Shown here: piece by piece, positions 10,708-32,473 of the stretch
How the letters are laid out: each line of letters begins with the position of its first letter
Position numbering within the stretch: position 1 is the stretch's first letter
Source: an uncultured Verrucomicrobiota bacterium
GTDB lineage: Bacteria > Verrucomicrobiota > Verrucomicrobiia > Limisphaerales > UBA9464
Direction of reading: 5' to 3'
Length of the DNA: 32,473 nt
NCBI GenBank assembly: GCA_903880005.1
Contig: CAIRNV010000050.1
Coordinates: 1-32,473 of the forward strand
The notes under the pieces: generated by a model
Told to the model about the DNA's origin: nothing
Seen by the model: the letters and a program-made list of their open reading frames with translations, nothing else
Database searches by the model: none
Position numbers and translations under genes: made by a program

Positions 10708-13700
10708 CTACGGAGCCTCGACGGCGCGGAACAGGCGCGGTTGGGCGTCGCCCACGGGTTCCACCGAGAAGACGAGGCCCGAGCTGGTTGCCGTCCATTC
10801 GGCCTCCGTCAGCCACTGGGCGAGGTCGTAGGACGACTCGATGCGATAGCGGCGTCCCGGCGTCCCGCGCAGGCGAAGGGTCACGCGGCCGTCGGCTTCT
10901 TGGATGGGAGCCCCAAAGGACGGGGGTGCGCCCACGGGTTCCCCATTCGGGGCGCCGGGCGTGGGCTTGGTCGTGACGTAGTTGGCCACGGCGCCATCCG
11001 GGGACCGGGCGAGGGCGGTGTCGATGGCGAAGGGGCTTTGGCCGTTGAACCAGTCGATGGTGTTGGGCGAGCCGTTGACGAGCCGGGTGAGGGCGAGGCG
11101 GATCTGGGCTCCTCCGGTCAACGGGAGGCGGAAGTTGGCGTGGAGTTCCGCAGCCGTGGACTGCTGCGGCTCGCCGTCCGCAAAGACGACGAGGTGGCCA
11201 AGTGGCGGGATGGAGGTTCCCGGGGGGAATGGCCACTTGAGCGGGACGGCGTCGGCATCGGAGAGGAAGACGCCATCCAAGACGGCGGTGACGGCGCCCG
11301 TGTTGACGATCTCGATCCATGGCTCCGCGGTGCCGGAGGCATCCGTGAGGCCGGAGACATTGCGCGCGACGACCTCGTTGATGCGGATGGGCGGGAATTC
11401 CGGGAGCGATGCCACGACGTTGTTGGGGGCCCCTGGCGTTGATGGCGAGTTGGCCCCGCCCACGAGGACCAGCTCGAGGCCGAAGACAAGGTCGGAGCTG
11501 CCAAGGTTCGATTGGTGGACTTCCACGGCGAAGGTGTTTTCACCCGGGACGAGAAGGTTGGAAGGAAGGGTGAAGGGGCCCTCGAAGACGGCGTCGCTGA
11601 CGGTGCGGTTGGCCAGGGTGTCGTGGGTGGGCTCGATGTCGTCCATGCCGAGGAAGTGGGCCCTCTTGCCGTTGATCCACAGCACGTAGCCATCGTCGAG
11701 GCAGGTGGTGAGCTGGAGGGAGACGTCGGCGGGCAAGGCGGGCAGGGTGACCTTGCGCCGGAAGTAATAGGTGGGTTGGCCGAGGGCGAGCGCGGTGGTT
11801 TTGTTGGTGGGAAGGGCTGCGTTCTCGACGTAGAGGAGGCCTTCCCCGCTGAACCAACCCGCGTCATTGAAGGCGGCCGTGCGCCAGTTGGTGCCGCCCA
11901 CGGGCGGGCCGTCCTGGAAGTACCGCCAGGCATCGGTGAAGCGGATCGCTTCGCGGTTGCCGGAAAGGGCCGAGGCCACGGCCCAGTTCCCGGGACGGTT
12001 GTGGTCCTGCCGGGCATCGACGAGCTGGAGGGAGGCGTTGGTGGCGGTCGTGCCGCCGGGCCACGGATACCCGACGTCGTAGTCGAGCCGGTCGAGGATC
12101 TCGGAGGGTTGGCCGGGCGTGCTGGGCGTGCGGAGAACGATGGAGTCGAACTGCGTGCCCAAGCCACCGGTCCAAGCGCCCGCCACGGCGGGGGCATTGC
12201 CAAAGGCGGCCCGGAAGGACGCGACGTTTTGCACGACCACCACCTGGGCGGACGGCGCGAGAACGGTCCCGGCGGGGAAGGTGAACCGGATGCTGGAGCC
12301 GACGAGTTCCAGCCCGGAGATGTCCCATGGGGTTTGCGCGGAGCGGTTGAGGATCTCGATGAACTGGGTGCCGGGCGTCTGCGGCCGACGCAGCACCTCG
12401 TTGATCACAAGCTTCGGACGCGGGCGGGTGACCACTTGCAGGATGCGGCTGTCAGACAGCGACGGCGTGGCGTCATCGCTGACTTGGACGGTCACGCTCT
12501 GCGTGGATGCCCCGGCGTCCTCGCCGACGAGCCATTGAAGGGTGCCGGTGACGGGGTCGATGGCGGCCTCGGCGGGCGCGCCGGGCGCGAGGCTGTAGCG
12601 AAGCGCTTGCGGGGGCAGGTCCGCATCTCTTGCGGCGGCGCGAACGACGACGCGTTGGCCCTCGTCCACGACGAACGACGGGAAGGTTGCCAGCACGGGC
12701 GGGAGGTTGACCTCGCGGACTTGGATGAGGACCTCGCGGACGATCGAAGCCGTCTCGGGGGACGTGTCGGTGGCGCGGACGAGGACCACGTAGTTTCCCG
12801 GCCCTTGGGCCTCGGTGGGGGTCCACGCCAATCGACCGGCGGCCGCGTCGAGCGAGAGCCCGGCCGGGATGGTTCCTTCGAGCGAGAAGCGCACCGGGGT
12901 GCCCTCCGGGTCGATGGCGACGAGCAGCAGGTCCAACCGCTTTCCTTCGTCGATGGCGACCGGGGCCGGTTGGGGAAAATGAGGCGGGTTGTTGATCTCG
13001 GCGACGTCGATCCGGACGCTGCCACGCGCCGACAACGGGGGCGTGCCGTTGTCGGTGACGCGATAGCCCACGGTCACGGCCGTGCCCCCGCGCGACTCGT
13101 CGGGGATCCATGTGAGGACGCCCGCCGGGGAGATGGAGAGCCCCTCCGGCACGGGGCCGTCGGTCTCAAAGGCGAGCCCGTTGCTGGGCAGGTCTGGGTC
13201 GGAGGCGACCAAGGGCAGGCTGAGAAGCTGGCCTTCGCCCGCGTTGGCCGTGGTGAGGGGAGGGACAACGGGCGGACGATTGACCTCCGACACGGCGATG
13301 GTCACCCGCGTGGTGCCGGTGCGCGGGGGTGCGCCGTTGTCCGTGGCGCGCACCAGGAAGGAGAACGTCCCGGGGCCGTCGGCCTCCGAGGGAGTCCATC
13401 GGAACACGCCGGTGGACGGATGGATGCTGGACCCAGGGGGCGCGTCCTGGCCCAGGGCATAGGAGAAGGAATGGCCGGGATCGGGATCGGAGGCGACGGC
13501 GGTGAAGGTGGCCTCGGATTGCTCGGCGACGGAGACGGGGGCGACGGGGTTGAAGATGGGCGGGCGATTGGCCCCGGCGATGATGTTGGGTGCGCCGGGT
13601 GTCGGGGACTCCATGGCAAACAGGGGGGGAGCCGAGGCATCCGGGAATCGGCCCATGGAGACATCCGTTGCCTGGGCTGCGAAGGAGAGGCCATCCACGA

Positions 13701-16700
13701 GGTTGCCGGAAGGATCGAACAGCCCAAGCTGCTCGCCGGAGCGGGACAGCGCGAAGGCGACATGAAGCCCGGAGTTGGTGGGTTGGTTTTGGGCCGTCTC
13801 GTTGTCGGCCCAGACGAGGAGGAAGCCGCCGGGCGGGATGGGATACCCGCCGGGGATGCGGAACATGGAGGCGAGCGAATTGGTGAGGTTGTCCGTGAGG
13901 TAGTAGCCCGCGAGGTCCACGGGTTGAGTCCCGGCGTTGTGAAGCTCGAACCAATCGTCGAAATGGCCGTCGGCGGGGTCGGCGATGCTGCTGGTGTTCT
14001 GCGCCATGAACTCGTTGATCCACACGTCCACGCGCGGCGTGGCGGGGTCGTTGGTGGAGCCCGGGGTGGGATTGAACAGGATGCGGCGGGTGCGCGGCTC
14101 GCCATCGGGCACGGAGCCGAAGGCGCGTCCCGGCGGGAGGAGGTCCCACGACAGGTAGTCGAGGACGGCCGGGGCATTGGCCGTGCCTTGGCGGCGCGCA
14201 AGGGCGACGACGCCGTTGGTGGGGTTCAGCCGGAAGCTTGTGTGGGGAATGGAAGCCGTGGCCTCGGCCGGCTCGCCATCGGCCCAGACGGTGAGGACGC
14301 CGCCGGCGGGGATGGAGAGGCCGTCCGGGAACGGCCATTGGGTGAGGTTCGTGACGTTGTCGGAGAGGAAGAGGCCGCCGAGGGCGACGGCGACGGGACC
14401 CGTGTTGATGATCTCGATGAAGGGATCGCGGTCGCCCGCGTTGTCGGCGGGCCCGGCGACGTTGGCGGGCAGGACCTCATTAAGCCAGAGGGTGGGGAAG
14501 GCGGCGAGTGCCTGGACGGTGGCGTTGGCGCGCCCGGGGGTGGCTGCGTTCACGGCATTGGTCGCCGTGGCGGCCCAGTTGGCGACACGCCACGACCCAC
14601 GAGATGGATCCATCAGCTGCAATGAGGGCCCGAGCCCGTCGGCGTTCGTGGGCCATGGGAGCCGGTTGTCGTAGCGGACGTCGGTGACGAGGACGCGGTT
14701 GGTCCCGACGGGCTGCCAGAGCGCGATGCGTTCGCCGCCGTTGTCGAGGGAGCCGGGGAATTCGTCGAACAGAGGCGTGTTGGCCCCATAGGTGGCGGCG
14801 AAGGCGACGCGATCGCGGGCGAGGACGAGGAAGGCGCCGGGGTTGATGATGGCGCCCGGAGGGAACGCATAGCCCAGTCCCTCCAGCTCGAACCCCGAGA
14901 GGTCGAAGGCGGTGGACGTGGAGCGGTTGTGCAACTCGACGAAGGACGACCCGGAAGCGAGCCCGTTGTACTGGACCTCGTTGATCACGACGAAGTCCGA
15001 GGGCTTCTGGAGGGCGCCGGCAAAGGTGACGGTCCGGGAGGCGGCCATGCCGGGGATGGGGTTGCCGAGCCGGTCGATGGCGACGATGGCGAGGGCGTTG
15101 GTCGTGGCGGCAAGCGGGACGCGGAGCCGGAACCGTTGCTGGTCCAGCCATTCAGTGGGGACGGTCCTGCCATTGACGAGGATGTCGGCGGCGGCGAACG
15201 GGGCGATGCCCTCGAGGGTGGCGATGGGGGTCGCGGAGGCGAAGGTCGTGCCTGCCGGGGAGGTGACGGCAAAGTTCGCGGCGTCGTTGGCGGCGATTTG
15301 TTGCCGGATGAATTCACGCCGCGCATCGAGGTATCCGGAGATGGACTGCGGCGAGGCGGCCCCGATGCGATTGAAGGCCAGCGACGATGCGCGGGCGTTG
15401 AACTGGGGCTGGTACTGGGAGGGTTGGAAGGGGCCGGCGACGGCCTCGGCATAGGCGCGCCACGCCATGCGGCGGAAGGCGGGCGAGGCGAACATGAAGT
15501 TCACGTTGCCGTCGTTGCCGTCGAAGAGGCGGCGGCTGGGGCCGTCCCCGGCTCCCAGGACCCAATCCATGTCCCAGGGCAGGATGACCCAACGTCCCCC
15601 GGGCGGGTAATAGATGTACTTGTTCTGCGAGTTGCCGGTGCCCCACGTGTCCCAGTTCCCCATGCAGCCATCCAGGGCGAACATGCGCATCCATTGCTCC
15701 ATGTCGGCGACGTTGCTGACGACGGCCTGGTAGTTGGTGGACCGGTCGTTGGCCGCCGAGACCAAGGCGAGGAAGTTGGTGAAGTCGTTGGCGGTGGTGC
15801 CGTTCGGGCGGGCCTGCCAGTTCCAGCGATAACGCGACAGGCTATACTGGCCGTTGGGGGCCTTATAGGACCCGAGGTCGGCCCCGATGGGGTCGAAGCC
15901 CCCGTCGCTCCGGAACTCGAACCAGAACGCGACCTTGTGGAGGTCGCCCTCCGGAGCATCCGGGAACCATGCCTCCGCGTAGTTGTTGCTCGGCTGCTCG
16001 AGGTCCTCGCCCACGTTCCCGTGCTGGCCGCCGTTGCGGAAGAAACGAATGTAGTGGGCGTGCAGGTAAGGCAGGCGCATGCGACGCGTGAACCACTGCG
16101 CCATCTGGTTGCGGAGGAACGTGGGTTCCTCCCCCCCGTTCCCCGTGAGGCCGAAGACGCGGTCGGCCGTCCCCAGCAGGAGGTCGTCGGCCGGGACCGT
16201 GACCGCGAAGTCGGCCTGGCCCGTGAAGGGGCTGCCCTTGCGACGGATGCCGGCGTTGTAGATCACCCGGACGTTTCCGTGGACCAGCGTGGTGTCGCGG
16301 TACGTGTTGTCGAGGCCGTCGGCATTGAGGGCGTTGTCCACCTCGGGGGTTGTCCACGAATGGATGTGCTCGTACGTGCCAAACGGGACGGGGTCACCCC
16401 AGCGGACGTTGGCCTCTGAGACGGCGGGCAAGCCCTGGAAGACGGGGCCCGAGGGAAACTGGGACCACGCCACGCTGGGCGCGCCGTCGGCGGCCTCGAT
16501 TCTGAATTGGACGAGGGTCCCGGCGGCGCGCCCGTTGAGGGTGGCGGACCAGACGCCATCGCCCGCCACGGCGTCGCCGAAGAGGCCGTCGTCACGCATG
16601 GCCAGCGTGTTGAACGCCCCGGTGGACCCGGTGCGAAAGCGGAGGTTCACCGAGCCCAGGCCGTCGGGGTCTGACACGCGGGCAGTGACCACGACGGGTT

Positions 16701-19700
16701 GGCTGGCGTCGGGCACGGCGGGCGAGTGGGAGACCTCGGAGATGGCAGGGCCGGCGTTGTTGACGAGTCGGGTGTTGGCTTGGCCAGGTGTGCCGAGGTT
16801 CTTGGGGACCGCGAGGGAGGCGGTCAGTTCAAGGCCGCCGCCGCGGGTGCGCATGAGGATTTCCGGCCAGCCCGCCACCCAGCGGGCCCGCAGCCGGAGG
16901 GTGCCGCGCACGTCGTTGTTGAGCCCCGCCGAGATGTTGGCGCGGATGCAGTTCCTCCCGGCGTCGAGGTCGCCCGGGGCGATGATGCGAAGGACGCGGT
17001 TGCCGGCGAAGGCACCCGTGGACTCCACGCGGGAGCGGGAATGGTGACCGCCGAAGGTCCAGCCGGTGGCGGTGATGCCCGCGCCCGTCTCGAAGCCGCC
17101 GTTGGACAACAGGGAGAGCCCCGTGGGCCCCAGGACCTCGACGTTGTCCAGCAAGCATTCGCCCGCCCCGAGCATGCCGAGGTGGATCGCGTCGGGCGTC
17201 GTGGCCCCGAATCGCAGCACGTCGTTGATGGAAAATTCCTGCCACGCGGCCTTCCCGGACTCATCCGAGTCCGCCCAGCTCGCGGCCAGGAGCGTGTCGG
17301 CGCGCGGGTCCACCAGCTCGAGCGACGATCCGCCGCCGTCCGCCCACTTGCCCCACCGTCCACCCTGGCGCCATGCGACCTCGCCCACCGGGATGTGGAC
17401 CGTCCGGCTGGTGATCGCACCCAGCTCGTTCGTGGACTGGATGTCGTCGGGCTTGGCCAGGACCAGCCGTTCGCCACGATTGCGGAGGGAGCCGGACCAG
17501 TTGCCGTGGACGATCGCGGGCGGGAGGGTCGGGTAGTTCGAGAGAAGCCGGGCGCGGTCGCGCCCAACCACCACGAACCCGCCTGGCGCAATCGCGGCGT
17601 CTTCGGGGAACGTGAAGCTGACCGCCTCGGACAGCCTCCAACCCGCCAGGCTGACGGGCGTGGCGGAACGATTGTGGATCTCGACGAACTCGTCGGCGTC
17701 GTCCTGGGAGATCGGGTTGTACATCACCTCGTTGATGACGACGTCCTCGACCCGGCGCGGTGCGTTGGGTGCACCGGCCGTGGACGAGGCGAGGCGGCGC
17801 AACGCGGGCGCGCCGTCGGGAACCCGTCCGTAAGAGACGCCGTTTTCCTGCGGCGCCAGCCGGATGCCATCGATCACCCGGAGCCCGTTGGAGCTGATCA
17901 GCAGGACGGTTTCCCCTGCGGCACTGAGCCGGAAGCCCAGGGTGTTTTCGTCCAATGCGAGGAAGGACCGGGGCTCCAGCGTCGTGCCGGCCGGGAACCG
18001 GTAGCGATTGGTGCGGACGTCGTCCGTGAGGATGCAGCCGTCGAGCACCACGGGGTTGGGGCCGCGGTTGTAGAGCTCGACGAAGTCCAGCAGGGGCGGG
18101 TCCGTGTGGGCGAGCAGCTCGTTGATGGACACGCTGCTGGCGGGGTCCGCGACGATGGGGTCGGGCGCGCCGGGGTTGCCGCCGCGCAACGCGCTGGCAG
18201 CCCATGCCCGAGGGTCGGCCTCGCCATAGCTCGGGTTGACCAAGACCAACGAGTGCCCAGATCCGTCCGCCACGATGGGCCACGGCGCACGGGTGTCGTA
18301 CTCGACGAAGAGCTTCCGCGCCCCCAGCTCGTCGCGTAGCTCGACCGCGTCGCCGCCGTTGTTCAAGGCGCCGGCGAACGGGCCGAGCACGCGGGACAGC
18401 CCCGTGGCCGCCTGGAGGACCTCGGGCTCGGCAGACACAACGAGGAACTGGCCGCCCGCCAAGGAAGTACCTTGCGGGAACGTGTACTCGACGCCGCCGC
18501 GCAGGCTCCACCCGGACAGGTCCTCCGGGATGTCCGATGCGTTGAACAACTCGACGAACTCGGGCCCGGACCCCGGGCCGACGTCGGCCGGGTGGTAGTG
18601 GATCTCGCTGACCACGACGCGGGTGCGCCGGCTTGTGACACCGAGGCCCTCGCGGGTGGGGACGTACGGCGCGATGACCGGGGCCGGGGCCGTGCCGTAG
18701 TCCGCGAAGCGCGCCAGGGCGGGGATCTCGGGATGGCGCCCGGCGACGGAGAGCCCGACGAAAACCTGGGACGGGAGCGCCGCGTTCATGGCGCCGAGCT
18801 GCGTCCAACGGGTGCCATCCATGGAGGCGAACCCGGTGAAATCGTTGCCGACGCGCCGGAGGCGGAGCCAGGTGAAGGGGTGGTTGACCGGGAACCCGCC
18901 GCGGATGGAGGCGGCGGTGGCGGCGGCCGAGGGGGTGTTGCGGGACTCGAAGAAGACCCCGGCCCGTGGCGAGGAGGCGAACACGCCGGCGAACGGCGCG
19001 TTGCTGGCGAGGGTCGATCGGGCCATCAAGCCGGCCGAGGCAAAGGCGTCCGACGCATCCAGCCCCGTCAGACGCACGCGCAGGTCGAAGTTCCCGCTCG
19101 TCGTTTGCCAGCCGAAGGTCGCGGCATCCGAGGTGCCGCCCACGTCGCCCCCTCTCGCCGACAGGACGAAGGCGCCGGCATCGCCTCGCACGACCGAGGC
19201 GCCGATGGCGTCCGAACCCAGGTTGGACGGCGACAGCTCGGAGGCCGTGAAGGCGACCTTGGCATTGGCGGGAAGCGGGTTGGGCGCGCTGGCGCGGTCG
19301 GTGACCCCGTTGACCGTCAGGTTGTATCGGTTGGCGAGCGCGAGGTTGGAGACGGCGAGCTGGATCCGATGCGGGGCGTCACCCATGGCGACCCCCGTGA
19401 GCAGGGCGCCGCCGTCGATCTGGAAGGCGGTGGCGAGCGGGAGGCCCGGGAGCTGGATGGGCTCCGAGAACTCGATGACGACGGCGGACAACCCCAGGTT
19501 GTACGCGCGCACGATGGAGGGCGGCGTGGTGTCGCGCGTCACGGTGAGCCTCGCGCCGTCGGAGACAACGCTGCCCAGCGAATTCGTGAGGAGCGCGGTG
19601 AAGACGGCACCGTTGTCAGCGGGCGTCACGGGGCCCACGACGAGGGTCTTGAGGTTGGTGGACGAGATCGTCGAGCCGTTGCGCTGCCAGATGACTTGGG

Positions 19701-20370
19701 TGAGGCCGGGGTTGTCGTAATCGACCGTGAAGGTGGCGAACCCACCCTCGACGAGGGTGACGGGCTGGGGATGAAGGCTGACGTGGGGCGGTTGCGGCAG
19801 TTGCCCCCATGCCGTGAAGTGTTCCAGCGGGATGGGGCCCTCGTCCTTGCCGTCAGGCCGCAGCCAGCGCACGGCGAGGTTGTCGCCGCCGCCACCCTCC
19901 TTCTGCAACGCCTCGATGTAGTAGCTCTTGCCAGCCACCAACGGGATGGGCTCGCTGCGTTGCTCGGGGCTTTGTTCCCACGCCCGGGAGGCGGTCCACC
20001 CGCTGACTTGCGCGATTTGCCGGCGGTTGGCGGGGTACGCGTCCGTGCTCAGGAACAACGACGACCCGTCGTCGCTGGCGATCCAGAAGGTGTAGTTGCC
20101 CGTGACAGGCGCGACGAACGTGGCCCGAAGTCGCTGGCCATAGTTCTCGTTCCAGTCGGTCGGGGCCTCGAAAAGCGTCGTCAGGAGGTTCGTGAGCGAC
20201 GGCGAGGCGGGATAGGCCGGGTTGTTGGTGAGGTCGGCCACGGAGTTGCCCCCGATGCCGAGCCACACCTCGCGCAGGACGCTTCCGGCCCGTGCGGACG
20301 GACCCGCGCACCACGACGCCAGCAAGACCATGCAAACCCACGAAACCCACCGTTGGTTAGGATGCTTCAT
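10708..20370 (-). CDS. Giant secreted multidomain protein: PA14-like, eight lamin-tail domains, CotH kinase-like, cadherin-like repeats
   Basis: This is a 3220-residue exported protein with a signal peptide (1-28, ending ARA). Approximate order: PA14-like (35-185), Ig-like (190-280), SbsA/Ig-like (285-380), concanavalin-like (390-560), lamin-tail domains starting near 583, 745 and 875, carbohydrate-binding-like (about 1085-1190), an Ig-like linker, a CotH kinase-like domain (about 1330-1690, with NWDTWGTGNSQNKYIYY and ILPWDMDWVLG), lamin-tail near 1793, 1963 and 2115, four cadherin-like repeats (about 2267-2645, each with NRPP/NNPP-type starts and a D.DP motif), lamin-tail near 2654, galactose-binding-like (about 2808-2970), lamin-tail near 2993, and a C-terminal RRYRIESSYDLAQW module. 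Lamin-tail starts read (V/I)INEV or similar. CotH in Bacillus phosphorylates coat proteins; the target here is unknown. No sorting signal is obvious. It may be a surface or polymer-binding protein. Confidence 0.9.
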   Translation of the reverse strand: MKHPNQRWVSWVCMVLLASWCAGPSARAGSVLREVWLGIGGNSVADLTNNPAYPASPSLTNLLTTLFEAPTDWNENYGQRLRATFVAPVTGNYTFWIASDDGSSLFLSTDAYPANRRQIAQVSGWTASRAWEQSPEQRSEPIPLVAGKSYYIEALQKEGGGGDNLAVRWLRPDGKDEGPIPLEHFTAWGQLPQPPHVSLHPQPVTLVEGGFATFTVDYDNPGLTQVIWQRNGSTISSTNLKTLVVGPVTPADNGAVFTALLTNSLGSVVSDGARLTVTRDTTPPSIVRAYNLGLSAVVIEFSEPIQLPGLPLATAFQIDGGALLTGVAMGDAPHRIQLAVSNLALANRYNLTVNGVTDRASAPNPLPANAKVAFTASELSPSNLGSDAIGASVVRGDAGAFVLSARGGDVGGTSDAATFGWQTTSGNFDLRVRLTGLDASDAFASAGLMARSTLASNAPFAGVFASSPRAGVFFESRNTPSAAATAASIRGGFPVNHPFTWLRLRRVGNDFTGFASMDGTRWTQLGAMNAALPSQVFVGLSVAGRHPEIPALARFADYGTAPAPVIAPYVPTREGLGVTSRRTRVVVSEIHYHPADVGPGSGPEFVELFNASDIPEDLSGWSLRGGVEYTFPQGTSLAGGQFLVVSAEPEVLQAATGLSRVLGPFAGALNNGGDAVELRDELGARKLFVEYDTRAPWPIVADGSGHSLVLVNPSYGEADPRAWAASALRGGNPGAPDPIVADPASSVSINELLAHTDPPLLDFVELYNRGPNPVVLDGCILTDDVRTNRYRFPAGTTLEPRSFLALDENTLGFRLSAAGETVLLISSNGLRVIDGIRLAPQENGVSYGRVPDGAPALRRLASSTAGAPNAPRRVEDVVINEVMYNPISQDDADEFVEIHNRSATPVSLAGWRLSEAVSFTFPEDAAIAPGGFVVVGRDRARLLSNYPTLPPAIVHGNWSGSLRNRGERLVLAKPDDIQSTNELGAITSRTVHIPVGEVAWRQGGRWGKWADGGGSSLELVDPRADTLLAASWADSDESGKAAWQEFSINDVLRFGATTPDAIHLGMLGAGECLLDNVEVLGPTGLSLLSNGGFETGAGITATGWTFGGHHSRSRVESTGAFAGNRVLRIIAPGDLDAGRNCIRANISAGLNNDVRGTLRLRARWVAGWPEILMRTRGGGLELTASLAVPKNLGTPGQANTRLVNNAGPAISEVSHSPAVPDASQPVVVTARVSDPDGLGSVNLRFRTGSTGAFNTLAMRDDGLFGDAVAGDGVWSATLNGRAAGTLVQFRIEAADGAPSVAWSQFPSGPVFQGLPAVSEANVRWGDPVPFGTYEHIHSWTTPEVDNALNADGLDNTYRDTTLVHGNVRVIYNAGIRRKGSPFTGQADFAVTVPADDLLLGTADRVFGLTGNGGEEPTFLRNQMAQWFTRRMRLPYLHAHYIRFFRNGGQHGNVGEDLEQPSNNYAEAWFPDAPEGDLHKVAFWFEFRSDGGFDPIGADLGSYKAPNGQYSLSRYRWNWQARPNGTTANDFTNFLALVSAANDRSTNYQAVVSNVADMEQWMRMFALDGCMGNWDTWGTGNSQNKYIYYPPGGRWVILPWDMDWVLGAGDGPSRRLFDGNDGNVNFMFASPAFRRMAWRAYAEAVAGPFQPSQYQPQFNARASSLAFNRIGAASPQSISGYLDARREFIRQQIAANDAANFAVTSPAGTTFASATPIATLEGIAPFAAADILVNGRTVPTEWLDQQRFRLRVPLAATTNALAIVAIDRLGNPIPGMAASRTVTFAGALQKPSDFVVINEVQYNGLASGSSFVELHNRSTSTAFDLSGFELEGLGYAFPPGAIINPGAFLVLARDRVAFAATYGANTPLFDEFPGSLDNGGERIALWQPVGTNRVLVTDVRYDNRLPWPTNADGLGPSLQLMDPSRGSWRVANWAATATNAVNAATPGRANATVQALAAFPTLWLNEVLPANVAGPADNAGDRDPFIEIINTGPVAVALGGLFLSDNVTNLTQWPFPDGLSIPAGGVLTVWADGEPAEATASIPHTSFRLNPTNGVVALARRQGTANAPAVLDYLSWDLLPPGRAFGSVPDGEPRTRRILFNPTPGSTNDPATPRVDVWINEFMAQNTSSIADPADGHFDDWFELHNAGTQPVDLAGYYLTDNLTNSLASMFRIPGGYPIPPGGFLLVWADNETAQNQPTNSGLHVAFALSRSGEQLGLFDPSGNLVDGLSFAAQATDVSMGRFPDASAPPLFAMESPTPGAPNIIAGANRPPIFNPVAPVSVAEQSEATFTAVASDPDPGHSFSYALGQDAPPGSSIHPSTGVFRWTPSEADGPGTFSFLVRATDNGAPPRTGTTRVTIAVSEVNRPPVVPPLTTANAGEGQLLSLPLVASDPDLPSNGLAFETDGPVPEGLSISPAGVLTWIPDESRGGTAVTVGYRVTDNGTPPLSARGSVRIDVAEINNPPHFPQPAPVAIDEGKRLDLLLVAIDPEGTPVRFSLEGTIPAGLSLDAAAGRLAWTPTEAQGPGNYVVLVRATDTSPETASIVREVLIQVREVNLPPVLATFPSFVVDEGQRVVVRAAARDADLPPQALRYSLAPGAPAEAAIDPVTGTLQWLVGEDAGASTQSVTVQVSDDATPSLSDSRILQVVTRPRPKLVINEVLRRPQTPGTQFIEILNRSAQTPWDISGLELVGSSIRFTFPAGTVLAPSAQVVVVQNVASFRAAFGNAPAVAGAWTGGLGTQFDSIVLRTPSTPGQPSEILDRLDYDVGYPWPGGTTATNASLQLVDARQDHNRPGNWAVASALSGNREAIRFTDAWRYFQDGPPVGGTNWRTAAFNDAGWFSGEGLLYVENAALPTNKTTALALGQPTYYFRRKVTLPALPADVSLQLTTCLDDGYVLWINGKRAHFLGMDDIEPTHDTLANRTVSDAVFEGPFTLPSNLLVPGENTFAVEVHQSNLGSSDLVFGLELVLVGGANSPSTPGAPNNVVASLPEFPPIRINEVVARNVSGLTDASGTAEPWIEIVNTGAVTAVLDGVFLSDADAVPLKWPFPPGTSIPPLGHLVVFADGEPQQSTAAELHANFRLPLTGGAQIRLALTRLVNGSPNTIDWFNGQSPFAIDTALARSPDGAVANYVTTKPTPGAPNGEPVGAPPSFGAPIQEADGRVTLRLRGTPGRRYRIESSYDLAQWLTEAEWTATSSGLVFSVEPVGDAQPRLFRAVEAP

Positions 20371-28431: not shown

Positions 28432-29559
28432 ATGAACGAGGTCAAGGATACGGTCGTCGGTCGCGGCGCGGTCCATGGACCCGCGCGGCCGTCGCGCGTC
28501 GTGGTCGGGATGAGCGGCGGCGTGGACTCGTCGGCGACGGCCGCCCTGCTCCTGGAGCAAGGGCACGAGGTCATCGGCGTCACCCTCAAGCTGTGGCCCC
28601 AGGACTGCTCCGCCCGCGCGGAGGACAAGTGCTGCGGGCCCCAGGCCGTGATGGATGCGAGGTCGGTCTGCTCGCGGCTCGGCATCCCGTTCTACCTCGT
28701 GGACGAGGCCGGGGAGTTCCAGCAGAGGGTCATCGGCTACTTTGCCGACGAATACCGGGCCGGTCGAACCCCCAACCCCTGCGTGATGTGCAACCAACAC
28801 CTCAAGTTCGGGAGCCTGCTGCGTCGCGCGGACCAGCTCGGCGCCGAGTACATCGCCACCGGCCACTTTGCACGCATCGAGCGGCACGACGACGGCAGCG
28901 TCTCGCTCCTCCGGGGCAGGGACCCGCGCAAGGACCAGAGCTACTTCCTCTTCAGCCTCCGGCAGGAGCAGCTTCGCCGGGCGTTGTTCCCGCTTGGCGA
29001 CAAGACCAAGGCCGACACCCGCGCGGTCGCGCGCGAGTCCGGCCTGCGCACGGCCGACAAGGAGGAGAGCATGGAAATCTGCTTCGTCCCCGACAACGAC
29101 TACGGCGGGTTCCTCGAGGGCTCCGGGCTGGTGGCCCGGCACGAGGGCGACATCGTGGACGCCTCGGGCCGCGTGCTGGGCCGTCATCAGGGCGTTGAGT
29201 TCTTCACCGTGGGCCAGCGCCGCGGCCTGGGCATCGCGGCGGGTCGCCCCCTGTACGTGGTCCGCCTCGATGCCGCCCGCAACCAGGTGGTCGTGGGGGA
29301 GGAGCCGGAATTGCTACGCGACCGCTGGCGCGTCGCGTCCACGAGCTGGATCGACGGCATCGGCCCCCGTGAGGAAGTGGGCTGCACGGCTCAGGTGCGG
29401 CACGGGCACCCGGGCGTGGCGGCCCTCGTGCGGCCCTTGCCTGGCGGCGTGACCGAGGTGGTGGCGTCCGAGCCCGTCCGGGCCGTGACGCCCGGCCAGG
29501 CCTGCGTGTTCTATGACGGCGACCGCGTCCTGGGCGGCGGCTGGATCACCCAGGCCTGA
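28432..29559 (+). CDS. mnmA: tRNA-specific 2-thiouridylase MnmA
   Basis: MnmA thiolates uridine-34 of Lys, Glu and Gln tRNAs using ATP and a sulfur relay. The 375-residue protein has the PP-loop SGGVDSS (28-34), the NPCVMCN motif with nucleophile Cys120 and a further Cys117, and the second catalytic Cys217 in EICFVP. Further landmarks are ATGHFARI (142-149), DPRKDQSYFLFSL (164-176), GVEFFTVGQRRGLGI and the C-terminal beta-barrel ending QACVFYDGDRVLGGGWI. The first 20 residues are a short extension before the PP-loop domain. It ends six bases before the convergent TPR gene ends. Confidence 0.95.
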   Translation: MNEVKDTVVGRGAVHGPARPSRVVVGMSGGVDSSATAALLLEQGHEVIGVTLKLWPQDCSARAEDKCCGPQAVMDARSVCSRLGIPFYLVDEAGEFQQRVIGYFADEYRAGRTPNPCVMCNQHLKFGSLLRRADQLGAEYIATGHFARIERHDDGSVSLLRGRDPRKDQSYFLFSLRQEQLRRALFPLGDKTKADTRAVARESGLRTADKEESMEICFVPDNDYGGFLEGSGLVARHEGDIVDASGRVLGRHQGVEFFTVGQRRGLGIAAGRPLYVVRLDAARNQVVVGEEPELLRDRWRVASTSWIDGIGPREEVGCTAQVRHGHPGVAALVRPLPGGVTEVVASEPVRAVTPGQACVFYDGDRVLGGGWITQA

Positions 29560-29565
29560 CCCGCT

Positions 29566-30753
29566 TCACGATGTCGTTCCAGCGCCTCCGGATGCCGGCC
29601 CCTCGGCCCGCGGAGGCCCGCCGGTCAGGGGGGACGCATGCGTGATGGACTCCAACTCGCGGATTCGAGCTAGGGCCGCCGCGCGCTTTTGCACGGCGGC
29701 GCCTGGATCGGCGGCCACGGACAAGGACCTCGTCAAGACGTCCGCCCATTCCCGCAAGGTCGCCAACTCTGCCCCGGGCGTCCCGTGATCCCTTTCCCAC
29801 GACGCCATCCATTCAAGGACCGTACTCAGGTCGCGGAGCGCCTCGGGCGATGGCCCGAGCTGTTCCACCAGGCGACGACGGATGCCGAGGCTCTCGCGCC
29901 ATGCCTGGGCGGCTCGGTCCCAGTGACCGTTTCGCGAGGCGACCCTCCCGGAGGCACGCCAAGCCACCGCCAAGGCCCGGTTTATCGAGGGCGTGGCCTC
30001 CTCGCGGGTCGATGAACGGAGGATCGTGACGAGTTCCGAGGCGATGGAGCCCGCGCGGACGAGGTCGCCCCGTTCGAGGGAAAGTTCGACGAGGTCCTCC
30101 ACCAACTGGGACGACGGCGGATGGGCGTGGGTTCCGTCGCGCCAGCGGGACCATTCGGCGAAGAGCAATGCCTCGCGTTCGGAGGGCGGGGAGGCGGGGC
30201 CTTGCTGGGGCGTCGCCGGAACGTCGCGATGGAACGGCGGGTGGGGCAACACGGCGGGGCGGCACGCCCGGACCTCGCGGCTGAGGGTTCGCACGCTCCA
30301 GAGGTCGGGCGCGATGCCGCCGATGCGCGCGATGTAGTGAGTGGGGAGGGAGAGGACGAGGAGGCCTGGAACCTCACGTTCCAGCCGGGAGCGTTGCTCG
30401 TTGAGGCGTGCGAGGACGTGGTCGCGGGCGCGGTTCCATGCGTCATCGCCCGGGGAACCCTGGAGATCGATCCAGACGGGCGGGCGGCGGGAAGGAAACC
30501 GGGCGTCCGCCTGGAGGGCGCCCACGATGTCGGCCGTGGCCGACGCCGGCGATGCGGGGACAACGTGCTGGATGGCGGCGGTCTGGAACCTCAAGGCGTC
30601 CTGCATCCGGCCACGGATTGCGTCGAGCGCGGCCGGGTCGTCGGAGTACAGCAGGACCAACGTGAAGCCCTCATGCCAATCCATGAGTTGGCGAAGCTCT
30701 CGCCAGATGTCCTCGTCGAGGGGCAGTTCGCTGGGTTTGCCCGGGTCTGGCAT
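29566..30753 (-). CDS. TPR protein with an NTPase-like N-terminal domain lacking a P-loop; partner of the upstream ATPase
   Basis: This is a 395-residue soluble protein that I do not recognise as a named gene. Residues 20-165 alternate strands and helices (TLVLLYSDDPAALDAIRGRM at 31-50; PPVWIDLQG at 91-99; LARLNEQRSRLEREVPGLLV at 114-133; IAPDLWSVRTL at 147-157) in the manner of an ATPase fold. There is no GxxxxGK(S/T) Walker A motif, so it probably cannot bind ATP in the usual way. A Pro-rich linker (165-195) leads to helical TPR-like repeats (about 215-345). ATG 30753 lies five bases past the ATPase stop without a Shine-Dalgarno sequence, so translation is probably coupled. The frame continues upstream to 31329 as a shadow of the ATPase gene. 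It may be a sensor or adaptor, which is inference. Confidence 0.7.
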   Translation of the reverse strand: MPDPGKPSELPLDEDIWRELRQLMDWHEGFTLVLLYSDDPAALDAIRGRMQDALRFQTAAIQHVVPASPASATADIVGALQADARFPSRRPPVWIDLQGSPGDDAWNRARDHVLARLNEQRSRLEREVPGLLVLSLPTHYIARIGGIAPDLWSVRTLSREVRACRPAVLPHPPFHRDVPATPQQGPASPPSEREALLFAEWSRWRDGTHAHPPSSQLVEDLVELSLERGDLVRAGSIASELVTILRSSTREEATPSINRALAVAWRASGRVASRNGHWDRAAQAWRESLGIRRRLVEQLGPSPEALRDLSTVLEWMASWERDHGTPGAELATLREWADVLTRSLSVAADPGAAVQKRAAALARIRELESITHASPLTGGPPRAEGPASGGAGTTS

Positions 30754-30758
30754 GAAGG

Positions 30759-32105
30759 TCAGCCCGGGTGAATCAACTCCCGGACGAGGGGCAGGACATC
30801 GCACCATGCCTTGCCGTTGCGGTAGTCGAGGATGAGGTGGTTGTCGAAGAGCCGGGCGAGCGTGGCCAGGCCGCTGATGCCGTCCAACGCCGGGCCCTTG
30901 CCCTTGGCGACCTGCATGAGCCAGTCGCGGTCCTCCTTGGAAAGCTGGAAGTCGGCGCGGGTGTCGCGGAGCGCATACTGGACGATGGAATCGTCGGTCA
31001 TCGGCAGCGGACGACCGGGACACTTGAGGAGGGCGCGTTGGATGATGAGGAAGAAGATGCGCAGGTTGCCGCCGCTGGCATGGGCGACCTCGCGAAGCTG
31101 GGAGGGCGGGAACACCTCGGCCCACCGGGGGAAATGGGCATCCAAGACCGAAAGCATGAGGTCGATGCCCGGTTCGTGACGGGCCCCTTGCCGGAGCGGG
31201 TTGGCGTCCAGGGCCTCCGCAGGCTGGGGCCCCGGCGTCTCCTCCACCTTGATGTGAGGCAGCCCATGGATGCCGCCGTAGAGCGCCTGGATCCCGGGCG
31301 CGACCAGCGGGAGCGTGGGTGGCACGCAATAGACGACATGGAGCGTGTTGAACCCCAGGTTGTGGGCGTGGCCGAAGAAGACGTTGGAAAGGCTCTGGAA
31401 GACGGCGTCCGCATCGCTTCCTGATCCCCGGACTTTTTCGAGCGAATCCACGATCAAGACGACCTTGGCATCGGGATGGAGGCCGCGGTCGCGAACATCC
31501 TGCACGAGGCCGTCCACGAACTCCCGGGCACCCTTCACGAAGGTGTCGAGGGAGGCCTCCGAGATCCTCCGCAGCGATTCCTTGAACGTCGGATTGTCCT
31601 TCAACGCCAGCTTGAGGTCGGCGAAGCCCCCCAGCTTGAGGGTGGCCTCGGAGGCTTGGACCCCGGTGCGGGTCAGGAAGTCCTTGATGCGTTCCCAGTA
31701 GCCCGAGCGCGCCGGATCGGACCCAAGGCCCCTCGCGTAGGCCTCCGAAAAGGCACCCAGCACCGCCACCAACAAGTCCGTGATCCCAAGCGCGGCGGTC
31801 TCCTTGAGGTAATCGAGGGCATCGACGTAGTAGGCCGCATGTCCGTCGTCCCGGAGCGATCGCGTCAGATGGATGAGTTCGGTGGTCTTGCCCGAACCCC
31901 GCTGGCCGGAAAAAAGGTAGGACGCCGCCGTGTCGCGGAACTCGATGGCGCGGCGCAGCTCCCCGAGCGGATCCCGTCCGTCCGTCAAGTGGATGCCCTC
32001 CACGTACGCCATGGGCTGGATGTCTGCCCTCGACGGACTGGGGACTTGCAGCGGGATCGCGTTGTAGAACTCCTTGAGGAGCTTCTTTTGCTCGGACGCA
32101 TTCAT
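30759..32105 (-). CDS. STAND/AAA-like P-loop ATPase, first gene of a two-gene cassette
   Basis: This is a 448-residue soluble ATPase. Walker A is SGQRGSGKTT (66-75, Lys73) and Walker B is VVLIVDSLEKV (215-225, Asp220). A sensor-2-like SGGNLR (344-349) starts a helix, and the C-terminal winged-helix-like end reads LILDYRNGKAWCDVLPLVREL (424-444). The order of P-loop domain, then SGGN helix, then winged helix is like Orc/STAND or AAA ATPases. There is no membrane span. I chose ATG 32105 (MNASEQKKLL); another in-frame ATG at 32168 is possible. A GGAG lies about 10 bases before the chosen start. The downstream gene encodes the TPR partner. Upstream lies the MITE-like element. Defence or signalling use is inferred, not shown. 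Confidence 0.75.
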   Translation of the reverse strand: MNASEQKKLLKEFYNAIPLQVPSPSRADIQPMAYVEGIHLTDGRDPLGELRRAIEFRDTAASYLFSGQRGSGKTTELIHLTRSLRDDGHAAYYVDALDYLKETAALGITDLLVAVLGAFSEAYARGLGSDPARSGYWERIKDFLTRTGVQASEATLKLGGFADLKLALKDNPTFKESLRRISEASLDTFVKGAREFVDGLVQDVRDRGLHPDAKVVLIVDSLEKVRGSGSDADAVFQSLSNVFFGHAHNLGFNTLHVVYCVPPTLPLVAPGIQALYGGIHGLPHIKVEETPGPQPAEALDANPLRQGARHEPGIDLMLSVLDAHFPRWAEVFPPSQLREVAHASGGNLRIFFLIIQRALLKCPGRPLPMTDDSIVQYALRDTRADFQLSKEDRDWLMQVAKGKGPALDGISGLATLARLFDNHLILDYRNGKAWCDVLPLVRELIHPG

Positions 32106-32203: not shown

Positions 32204-32473
32204 GTGTCGTGTCTCACAAGTGGCTGGTGTTTCGCCGCGAGGGATTTTCGTGTCCAACGAGGCGCGAGAGACGAGCAGACCCGCAGAGGTCTGTGAGGAG
32301 CGAGCAACGACGTGGGACGCGAAAAGGGCCGCGGCCCTTCGGGTTGCTCCAAGAATGCCCCGGGGCTTCGTTGTTCGTCCGTCACAGACCGCTGCGGGTA
32401 GGCTCCGTCCTCACGCCTTGCCCCGGGGCATTCTTGGAGCAACCCAACACCAGCGATTTGTGAGACACGACAC
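32204..32473. mobile_element. MITE-like palindromic element with 28-bp terminal inverted repeats
   Basis: The outer arms 32204-32231 and 32446-32473 match as reverse complements at about 26 of 28 positions; both start GTGTCGTGTCTCACAA when read inward. Inside, 32341-32366 and 32420-32445 are perfect 26-bp inverted repeats. A second pair, 32273-32312 with about 32366-32405, is roughly 80% complementary. The two internal pairs interleave, so both cannot fold as simple nested hairpins. A perfect 16-bp palindrome, AAGGGCCGCGGCCCTT, lies at 32324-32339. No transposase is encoded, and the frames that cross it have no domains. The element ends exactly at the window edge, so a target duplication cannot be seen. 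It lies about 100 bases upstream of the ATPase gene. Confidence 0.75.
32324..32339. repeat. Perfect 16-bp palindrome inside the MITE-like element
   Basis: AAGGGCCGCGGCCCTT is its own reverse complement. It falls between the left internal arm and the first 26-bp arm, so it could be the tip of a small hairpin or a protein-binding site. Confidence 0.75.

What the first reader, a model, noticed from the sequence alone, without database searches (positions are those of the whole stretch)
29566..32105. Candidate undescribed two-gene system: STAND/AAA-like ATPase plus TPR protein with a P-loop-less NTPase fold
An intact ATPase (Walker A Lys73, Walker B Asp220, SGGN sensor, winged-helix end) is coupled, with a five-base gap, to a protein whose first 165 residues look like an ATPase fold with no Walker A, followed by TPR repeats. 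A live/dead NTPase pair with TPRs resembles sensor-switch modules of STAND-type conflict or signalling systems. No obvious nuclease, protease or toxin effector is present, so the effector may be distant or the pair may act differently.
Basis: partly seen in the sequence, partly recalled or inferred. Interest (0 to 1): 0.75.

Follow-up and report, generated by a model that had tools for sequence, protein, structure and literature searches.

The report
Two-gene STAND ATPase–pseudoATPase sensor pair
Two neighbouring bacterial genes, an ATP-using switch protein and a partner built from a related-looking but dead ATP-binding domain plus a repeat "sensor", almost always occur together and keep swapping the sensor part, so they probably form a split version of an immune-type receptor like those that detect invaders in plants, animals and bacteria.

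Summary
Gene A (30759-32105, minus) is an intact ORC/Cdc6-STAND-type AAA+ ATPase with a C-terminal winged helix. Gene B (29566-30753, minus) starts five bases after A. It has a 166-residue alpha/beta domain without a Walker A motif, a disordered linker and a TPR superhelix.

It is a real, sporadic two-gene module and not a core gene pair. Across 320 genomes of the order, the A profile and the B N-terminal profile hit the same 15 genomes (one-sided p about 5e-26, phylogeny ignored). In 17 of 19 A loci a B gene is adjacent, usually overlapping or within 30 bp. N118, R121 and D150 are invariant in 28 of 28 B domains. B's C-terminus is swapped among relatives: TPR, NACHT-LRR, cyclase-NACHT-HEAT, nSTAND1-WD40.

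The design matches, in architecture, the predicted counter-invader "nSTAND2" operon of Kaur et al. 2021, but carries sensor or NLR modules instead of GT4/HEPN. Membership could not be tested.

Most likely it is a split NLR-like switch: A is the motor, B the swappable sensor. Defence is plausible (a Type IIG restriction gene in one operon, a TIR in one cluster) but unproven. B's P-loop ancestry is supported by topology, not by strong statistics.

The parts
30759..32105 (-). Gene A: active ORC/Cdc6-STAND-type AAA+ ATPase, 448 aa
31884..31907 (-). A Walker A, GQRGSGKT (residues 67-74, K73)
   Evidence: G67, G70, G72 invariant, K73 nearly invariant
31446..31463 (-). A Walker B, VVLIVD (residues 215-220), followed by SLEK
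   Evidence: D220 invariant in 15 relatives
31059..31076 (-). A lid motif SGGNLR (residues 344-349; candidate sensor-2 Arg R349)
   Evidence: G345, G346, R349 invariant
30762..30938 (-). A C-terminal winged-helix-like domain (residues 390-448)
   Evidence: model secondary structure; match over 15-447 to 2qen
29566..30753 (-). Gene B: pseudo-STAND N-terminal domain plus TPR protein, 395 aa, 5 bp after A
30256..30753 (-). B N-terminal alpha/beta domain (residues 1-166), no Walker A
   Evidence: family alignment of 28 domains
30391..30402 (-). B motif N118-x-x-R121 (end of helix 3, before strand 4)
   Evidence: N118 and R121 invariant in 28 of 28
30304..30309 (-). B motif P149-D150 of APDLWSVR
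   Evidence: D150 invariant in 28 of 28, P149 25 of 28
29629..30198 (-). B TPR superhelix (residues 186-375), putative sensor
   Evidence: fastest-evolving part

Best explanation
A and B are a two-protein, NLR-like molecular switch. A is the ATP-dependent motor: an ORC/Cdc6-STAND AAA+ ATPase that should assemble on ATP binding. B is the partner: its N-terminal domain is probably an eroded copy of the same kind of P-loop domain and serves as the constant docking module onto A, while its C-terminal TPR superhelix is the interchangeable sensor. A ligand, most plausibly an invader protein, binds the TPRs; B then changes how it docks on A; A exchanges or binds ATP, oligomerises and passes the signal on. 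In the window no catalytic effector is fused to either protein, so output is either through A's winged helix (nucleic acid or partner binding) or a gene elsewhere. In relatives the output or relay is attached: a TIR on a second A-like subunit, a nucleotide cyclase and NACHT on B, a Type IIG restriction enzyme in the operon. Shown: the architecture, the folds of A and of B's TPR part (as confident models), strict pairing, sensor swapping, sporadic spread, purifying selection. Inferred: physical A-B complex, ATP-driven assembly, ligand sensing, a role in defence.
For: A profile hits and B-NTD profile hits fall in the identical 15 of 320 genomes (p 4.8e-26). In 17 of 19 A loci of that scan a B gene is adjacent, and 21 of 23 measured A-B junctions lie within 30 bp, 14 of them overlapping. 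The constant part is A plus the B NTD (three invariant polar residues in 28 of 28); the variable part is B's C-terminus: TPR, NACHT-LRR in L014, cyclase-NACHT-HEAT in L100, nSTAND1-WD40 in L026 and L027. Calothrix plasmid L028 has two A-like ATPases, one with a C-terminal TIR (PF13676 1.5e-33), and a B with two tandem NTDs, which suggests one NTD per A. L096 has B-A-B, one motor with two sensors. In L012 a Type IIG restriction-methyltransferase (E 1.9e-261) overlaps B. In Nostoc L031 an A-like domain is the C-terminus of a SAV_2336-type protein beside MoxR, as in ternary conflict systems. A's fold: Cdc6 Z 15.0, PAB2304 14.6, TnsC 14.2, NRC4 resistosome 11.9, CED-4 11.7.
Against: No test shows that A and B bind each other, hydrolyse ATP or defend cells. 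No effector is visible in the window operon; sequence more than 368 bp upstream of A is beyond the contig end. Most neighbours in relatives read as housekeeping genes, so there is no defence-island signal. P-loop ancestry of the B NTD rests on predicted topology and a degenerate Walker-B-like segment; profile-profile scores against A are weak (P 0.0024 and 0.03), and the NTD could not be folded and searched alone. No relatives in phages or viral contigs.
Confidence: 0.6

Rival explanations
1. Non-immune regulatory switch: the pair senses an internal metabolite or protein (like MalT-type STAND regulators with TPRs) and controls gene expression or assembly through A's winged helix.
For: A has an intact winged-helix end; STAND-TPR proteins such as 6mfv appear among fold matches of B; neighbours are mostly housekeeping; no effector in the window operon.
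Against: Sporadic distribution, decayed copies (L017 fragments, L102 and L103 with broken A frames), plasmid copies, swapping of sensor modules, NACHT, nSTAND1, TIR and cyclase associations.
Confidence: 0.25
2. The pair is a defence system in the strict sense (abortive infection) and a true member of nSTAND2 of Kaur et al. 2021, with the TPR in the effector position.
For: Same two-gene grammar, one active and one eroded STAND, variable C-terminal fusion on the eroded one (PMC8195603); Type IIG operon.
Against: None of the Pfam-scanned B proteins shows the GT4 or HEPN modules said to be commonest among its listed hits; A has no conserved Arg at the strand-5 position; the nSTAND2 alignments are in supplements that could not be read.
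Confidence: 0.35
3. B's N-terminal domain is not a P-loop NTPase relative at all but an unrelated Rossmann-like adaptor that docks on A.
For: Weak profile-profile score to A; no Pfam hit to the NTD; fold matches for the NTD alone were not obtained.
Against: Strand and helix order equals that of A minus lid and winged helix; the hhalign register puts B's strand 3 (hhhh[G/D]LE, e.g. IMLIDLEKAI in L099) on A's Walker B (VLIVDSLEK) and strand 4 on sensor 1; Foldseek rows with RFC subunits span NTD plus TPR.
Confidence: 0.2
4. A mobile-element accessory: a TnsC/MuB-like ATPase with an adaptor that regulates transposition or replication.
For: TnsC and MuB are close fold matches; a MITE lies about 100 bp upstream of A.
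Against: No transposase in the operon; the MITE is one of at least 40 genome-wide copies; B pairing and NLR-type fusions have no obvious place in a transposition module.
Confidence: 0.05

Closest known systems
nSTAND2 two-gene system (Kaur et al. 2021, eLife 10:e70394, PMC8195603)
   Same: Mobile two-gene bacterial operon; both proteins built on STAND modules; one has eroded NTP-binding motifs and is fused to variable C-terminal modules; the family is said to be near DAP3/CR-ATPases, basal to classic STANDs, which fits A's ORC/Cdc6-TnsC-like fold matches and a weak mS29/DAP3 profile hit.
   Different: No GT4 or HEPN module seen; modules here are TPR, NACHT, nSTAND1, WD40, cyclase. A lacks a conserved Arg at the strand-5 finger position. 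Direct sequence comparison was not possible.
iSTAND / iSTAND2 MoxR-vWA ternary systems (PMC7159879, PMC8195603) and BrxB iSTAND of BREX (PMC12839542)
   Same: A P-loop domain without Walker motifs, predicted to sense invaders; an A-like ATPase does occur in a MoxR/SAV_2336 cluster (L031).
   Different: No MoxR-vWA pair or PglZ recognised beside the window pair or its relatives; the partner is a STAND ATPase instead.
Antiviral STAND (Avs) and bacterial NACHT proteins
   Same: STAND switch plus C-terminal TPR sensor logic; Avs4 and AVAST5 are among Foldseek rows of B.
   Different: Motor and sensor are on two proteins, and no N-terminal nuclease or protease effector is present.
Archaeal STAND-like ATPases PAB2304 (2qen) and SSO1545 (2fna)
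   Same: Whole-length fold match to A (Z 14.6 and 13.3).
   Different: Only 12-13% identity; no B-like partner was looked for in archaea.

Membership tests
STAND-type (ORC/Cdc6-clade) AAA+ NTPase, protein A | Intact Walker A and hhhhD Walker B | tested here: met
   G67, G70, G72, D220 invariant, K73 nearly so in 15 relatives
STAND-type (ORC/Cdc6-clade) AAA+ NTPase, protein A | AAA+ core plus helical lid plus winged helix | tested here: met
   Model pTM 0.84; 2qen aligned over 15-447, Z 14.6, rmsd 4.6, 294 residues
One curated STAND/AAA family (ATPase_2, AAA_16, nSTAND3), protein A | Score above the curated cut-off | tested here: not met
   ATPase_2 19.9 of 33.2 bits, AAA_16 18 of 32.6, nSTAND3 14.9 of 27.2; A is filed only at clade level by fold and motifs
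Inactive STAND domain (iSTAND-like), protein B NTD | No functional Walker A | tested here: met
   No GxxGxGK[ST] in the window B or in the 28 aligned domains
Inactive STAND domain (iSTAND-like), protein B NTD | P-loop NTPase fold | tested here: inconclusive
   Predicted element order fits, but the NTD was not searched alone and profile-profile scores are weak
nSTAND2 two-gene system | Two-gene operon of an active and an eroded STAND, the latter with variable fusions | tested here: inconclusive
   Two-gene operon and variable fusions met; STAND nature of B not settled
nSTAND2 two-gene system | Conserved arginine finger in both proteins | tested here: inconclusive
   B has R155 at the end of helix 4 in 18 of 28 and invariant R121; A has no conserved Arg between strands 4 and 5; the authors' finger position is not given in the text
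nSTAND2 two-gene system | Sequence membership in the authors' alignment | not testable with these tools
   Alignments are in supplementary files, which cannot be read here; no model of that name among the hits
nSTAND2 two-gene system | GT4 or HEPN module (described as the most common fusion, not as universal) | tested here: not met
   No GT4 or HEPN among the listed Pfam hits of the scanned B proteins
iSTAND MoxR-vWA ternary system | MoxR ATPase and vWA protein in the same operon | tested here: inconclusive
   None recognised by reading ORFs around L002 and other relatives; not profile-searched, and the window ends 368 bp upstream of A
Avs antiviral STAND | One polypeptide: N-terminal effector, STAND core, C-terminal sensor | tested here: not met
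   A has no effector and no sensor repeats; TPRs are on B
Known PADLOC defence protein | PADLOC model match | tested here: not met
   Only mad8 at E 0.026 for A and nothing for B

The most novel reading that the evidence does not exclude
A split NLR with exchangeable receptors: one shared ATPase motor (A) is activated in trans by different sensor proteins (B) through a dedicated pseudo-ATPase docking domain, whose invariant N118/R121/D150 and, in most members, R155 complete or gate A's ATP site. This would be a bacterial counterpart of plant sensor/helper NLR pairs, with the sensor domain swapped between genomes (TPR, NACHT, nSTAND1-WD40) and effectors such as TIR carried on a second motor subunit.
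Probability: 0.3. Interest if true: 0.72.

Novelty: new variant of a known kind. Interest (0 to 1): 0.5.

Why it matters
If right, it gives a compact, testable system in which the sensing and the ATP-switch halves of an immune-type receptor sit on separate proteins joined by a dead ATPase domain. It would let one ask directly what a pseudo-STAND domain does (docking, finger in trans, or nucleic-acid sensing as proposed in PMC8195603) and how bacteria exchange sensors on a constant motor. It also defines a domain family with three invariant residues that none of the Pfam, NCBIfam or PADLOC searches made here matched to a curated model.

Tried and rejected
Curated family searches of the window pair gave only sub-threshold hits (Pfam, PADLOC, NCBIfam), and sequence searches of solved structures gave nothing informative. 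The B NTD of the window found nothing in plasmids; cyanobacterial and other relatives had to be used. Viral contigs gave no relatives of A, phage records none. Profile-profile comparison of the B NTD with A was tried twice and is not strong enough to claim homology. The suspicion that G000:C138 encodes an A fusion was dropped: the upstream 345 or so residues look like a spurious extension in GC-rich DNA, with a natural start MNERQSGRGEV; it is still labelled "fusion" in the tree. A conserved site next to mnmA was sought and not found: in relatives mnmA has other neighbours, and L002 shares no flank with the window. Literature searches for the PADLOC name PDC-S20, for Npun2340 and for Sll1717 gave nothing useful. 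The VIA list for B is filled by TPR proteins, so it says nothing about the NTD.

Full report
What is in the window. Gene A (30759-32105, minus strand, 448 aa) and gene B (29566-30753, minus strand, 395 aa) are separated by five bases. B converges on mnmA (28432-29559) with six bases between the stop codons. The window is the whole of contig C50 of a 492-contig, 5.02-Mb genome; a 75%-identical relative of A lies in a Verrucomicrobia MAG. A carries Walker A GQRGSGKT (K73), Walker B VVLIVD (D220) and SGGNLR at 344-349, all conserved across relatives. Against the relative L002, dN/dS is 0.22 for A, 0.37 for the B N-terminal domain and 0.51 for the TPR part: both genes are maintained, and the presumed sensor changes fastest.

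What the proteins are. The window proteins reach no curated cut-off in Pfam or NCBIfam and have no convincing PADLOC match. The A model (pLDDT 80.9, pTM 0.84) matches ORC/Cdc6 (7jgr_G Z 15.0, 246 residues, rmsd 3.4), the archaeal ATPase PAB2304 over its whole length (2qen Z 14.6, 294 residues, rmsd 4.6), TnsC (7mbw_A Z 14.2), the NRC4 resistosome (11.9) and CED-4 (11.7); Foldseek agrees and adds RdrA, BrxC, Apaf-1 and a TIR-NLR. So A is an ORC/Cdc6-STAND-clade AAA+ ATPase with a winged helix. B's model (pLDDT 81.2, pTM 0.51) has an N-terminal five-stranded alternating alpha/beta domain, a disordered linker and a TPR superhelix at 186-375 that matches solved TPR domains (Z 12.5-16).

Is the B N-terminal domain a dead P-loop NTPase? 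It has no Walker A. Its strand and helix order equals that of A without lid and winged helix. In an alignment of 28 domains N118, R121 and D150 are invariant; R155, in 18 of 28, sits at the end of helix 4 just before strand 5, where clamp-loader arginine fingers sit (position from my own knowledge; alignment). Strand 3 often ends in hhhh[G/D]LE, for example IMLIDLEKAI in L099, which hhalign sets on A's VLIVDSLEK, and strand 4 on A's sensor-1 strand; but the scores are weak (P 0.0024, 0.03). I treat homology as likely, not shown.

The pair is real and mobile-like. In 320 genomes of the order, A (E <= 1e-20) is in 15 and the B domain (E <= 1e-6) is in the same 15; by chance p is about 5e-26 (this ignores phylogeny). 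In that scan 17 of 19 A loci have an adjacent B gene; the other two, G000:C138 and G649:C455, are distant paralogues. Of 23 measured junctions, 21 are within 30 bp and 14 overlap. Class and phylum scans give 7 of 384 and 6 of 388 genomes. Of nine genomes of the genus two hold the close ortholog, and those two share no flanking genes in the stretches compared. Plasmids of Acidisarcina and of cyanobacteria carry relatives. In the A tree the window clade (nine rows, support 100/100) includes the Acidisarcina plasmid copy, and one genome (G244) holds A-B loci on three separate branches. Some copies are decaying (L017, L102, L103).

What varies is B's C-terminus. TPRs occur in the window and most relatives. 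L014 has NACHT with LRR-like repeats, L100 a Guanylate_cyc domain (PF00211), NACHT and HEAT repeats, L045 WD40 repeats (cyclase-like and NACHT-like stretches by my reading), L026 and L027 nSTAND1 plus WD40. L028 has two tandem B domains beside two A-like ATPases, one with a TIR domain. L096 has B-A-B. In L012 a Type IIG restriction-methyltransferase (PADLOC E 1.9e-261; Pfam MmeI domains) overlaps the end of B. In Nostoc L031 an A-like domain is fused to a SAV_2336-type protein beside a MoxR ATPase, the setting of ternary conflict systems (PMC7159879).

Mechanism. The constant parts, A and the B domain, are presumably what works together; the variable part is presumably what is matched to a changing target. 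The reading with best support is a split NLR: A switches and assembles with ATP, B docks through its dead domain and senses through its repeats. The doubled B domains beside two A-like ATPases in L028, and B-A-B in L096, fit one docking domain per motor and several sensors per motor. Complex formation, ATP-driven assembly, the ligand and the outcome are inferred. No effector is seen in the window, where the contig ends in a repeat 368 bp upstream of A.

What is known. Kaur et al. 2021 (PMC8195603) predicted a mobile two-gene counter-invader operon, nSTAND2, whose two proteins are STANDs, one eroded and fused to variable modules, most often GT4 or HEPN. The present pair has the same grammar. 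It differs in its modules, and A has no conserved Arg before strand 5. The authors' alignments could not be read, so membership is open. Other dead STANDs (iSTAND, iSTAND2, BrxB) have different partners. I therefore rate it a new variant of a known kind.

Limits. Neighbours of most relatives read as housekeeping genes (by eye), so guilt by association with defence is thin: one restriction operon, one TIR, cyclase and NACHT fusions. The scans sampled mainly one phylum plus plasmids. Structure jobs were limited to two, so the B domain was not searched alone and no complex was modelled.

Noticed in passing
window 32204-32473: MITE-like element of about 270 bp with terminal inverted repeats (GTGTCGTGTCTCACAA...) at the contig end, about 100 bp upstream of gene A; about 40 copies or more in the genome, many at contig ends.
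   Followed up: partly
window 10708-20370 (-): A 3220-aa open reading frame, by far the longest in the window; not examined.
   Followed up: no
L043 (G000:C138) and L044 (G000:C451): Two further distant A-family ATPases in the same genome without a recognisable B partner.
   Followed up: partly
L046 9637-11064 and L047 607-1971: A-family ATPases without B, in both cases near a gene that reads as a glutamyl-tRNA synthetase; a separate, partnerless branch of the family.
   Followed up: partly
L028 7824-15331 (Calothrix plasmid AP018277): Three-gene cluster: A, A-like ATPase with TIR, and a WD40 protein with two tandem B domains.
   Followed up: partly
L079 175-8753 (G000:C200): An 874-aa TPR protein with a marginal B-domain profile match (not at its N-terminus) beside a 1633-aa helicase/methyltransferase-like protein by eye.
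   Followed up: no
L077 2-580 (G224): The 3' end of a DUF1016-like nuclease gene (by eye) just upstream of another A-B pair.
   Followed up: no
L069 (G201:C21): Two mnmA-like matches about 6 kb apart, one covering only the C-terminal 40%.
   Followed up: no
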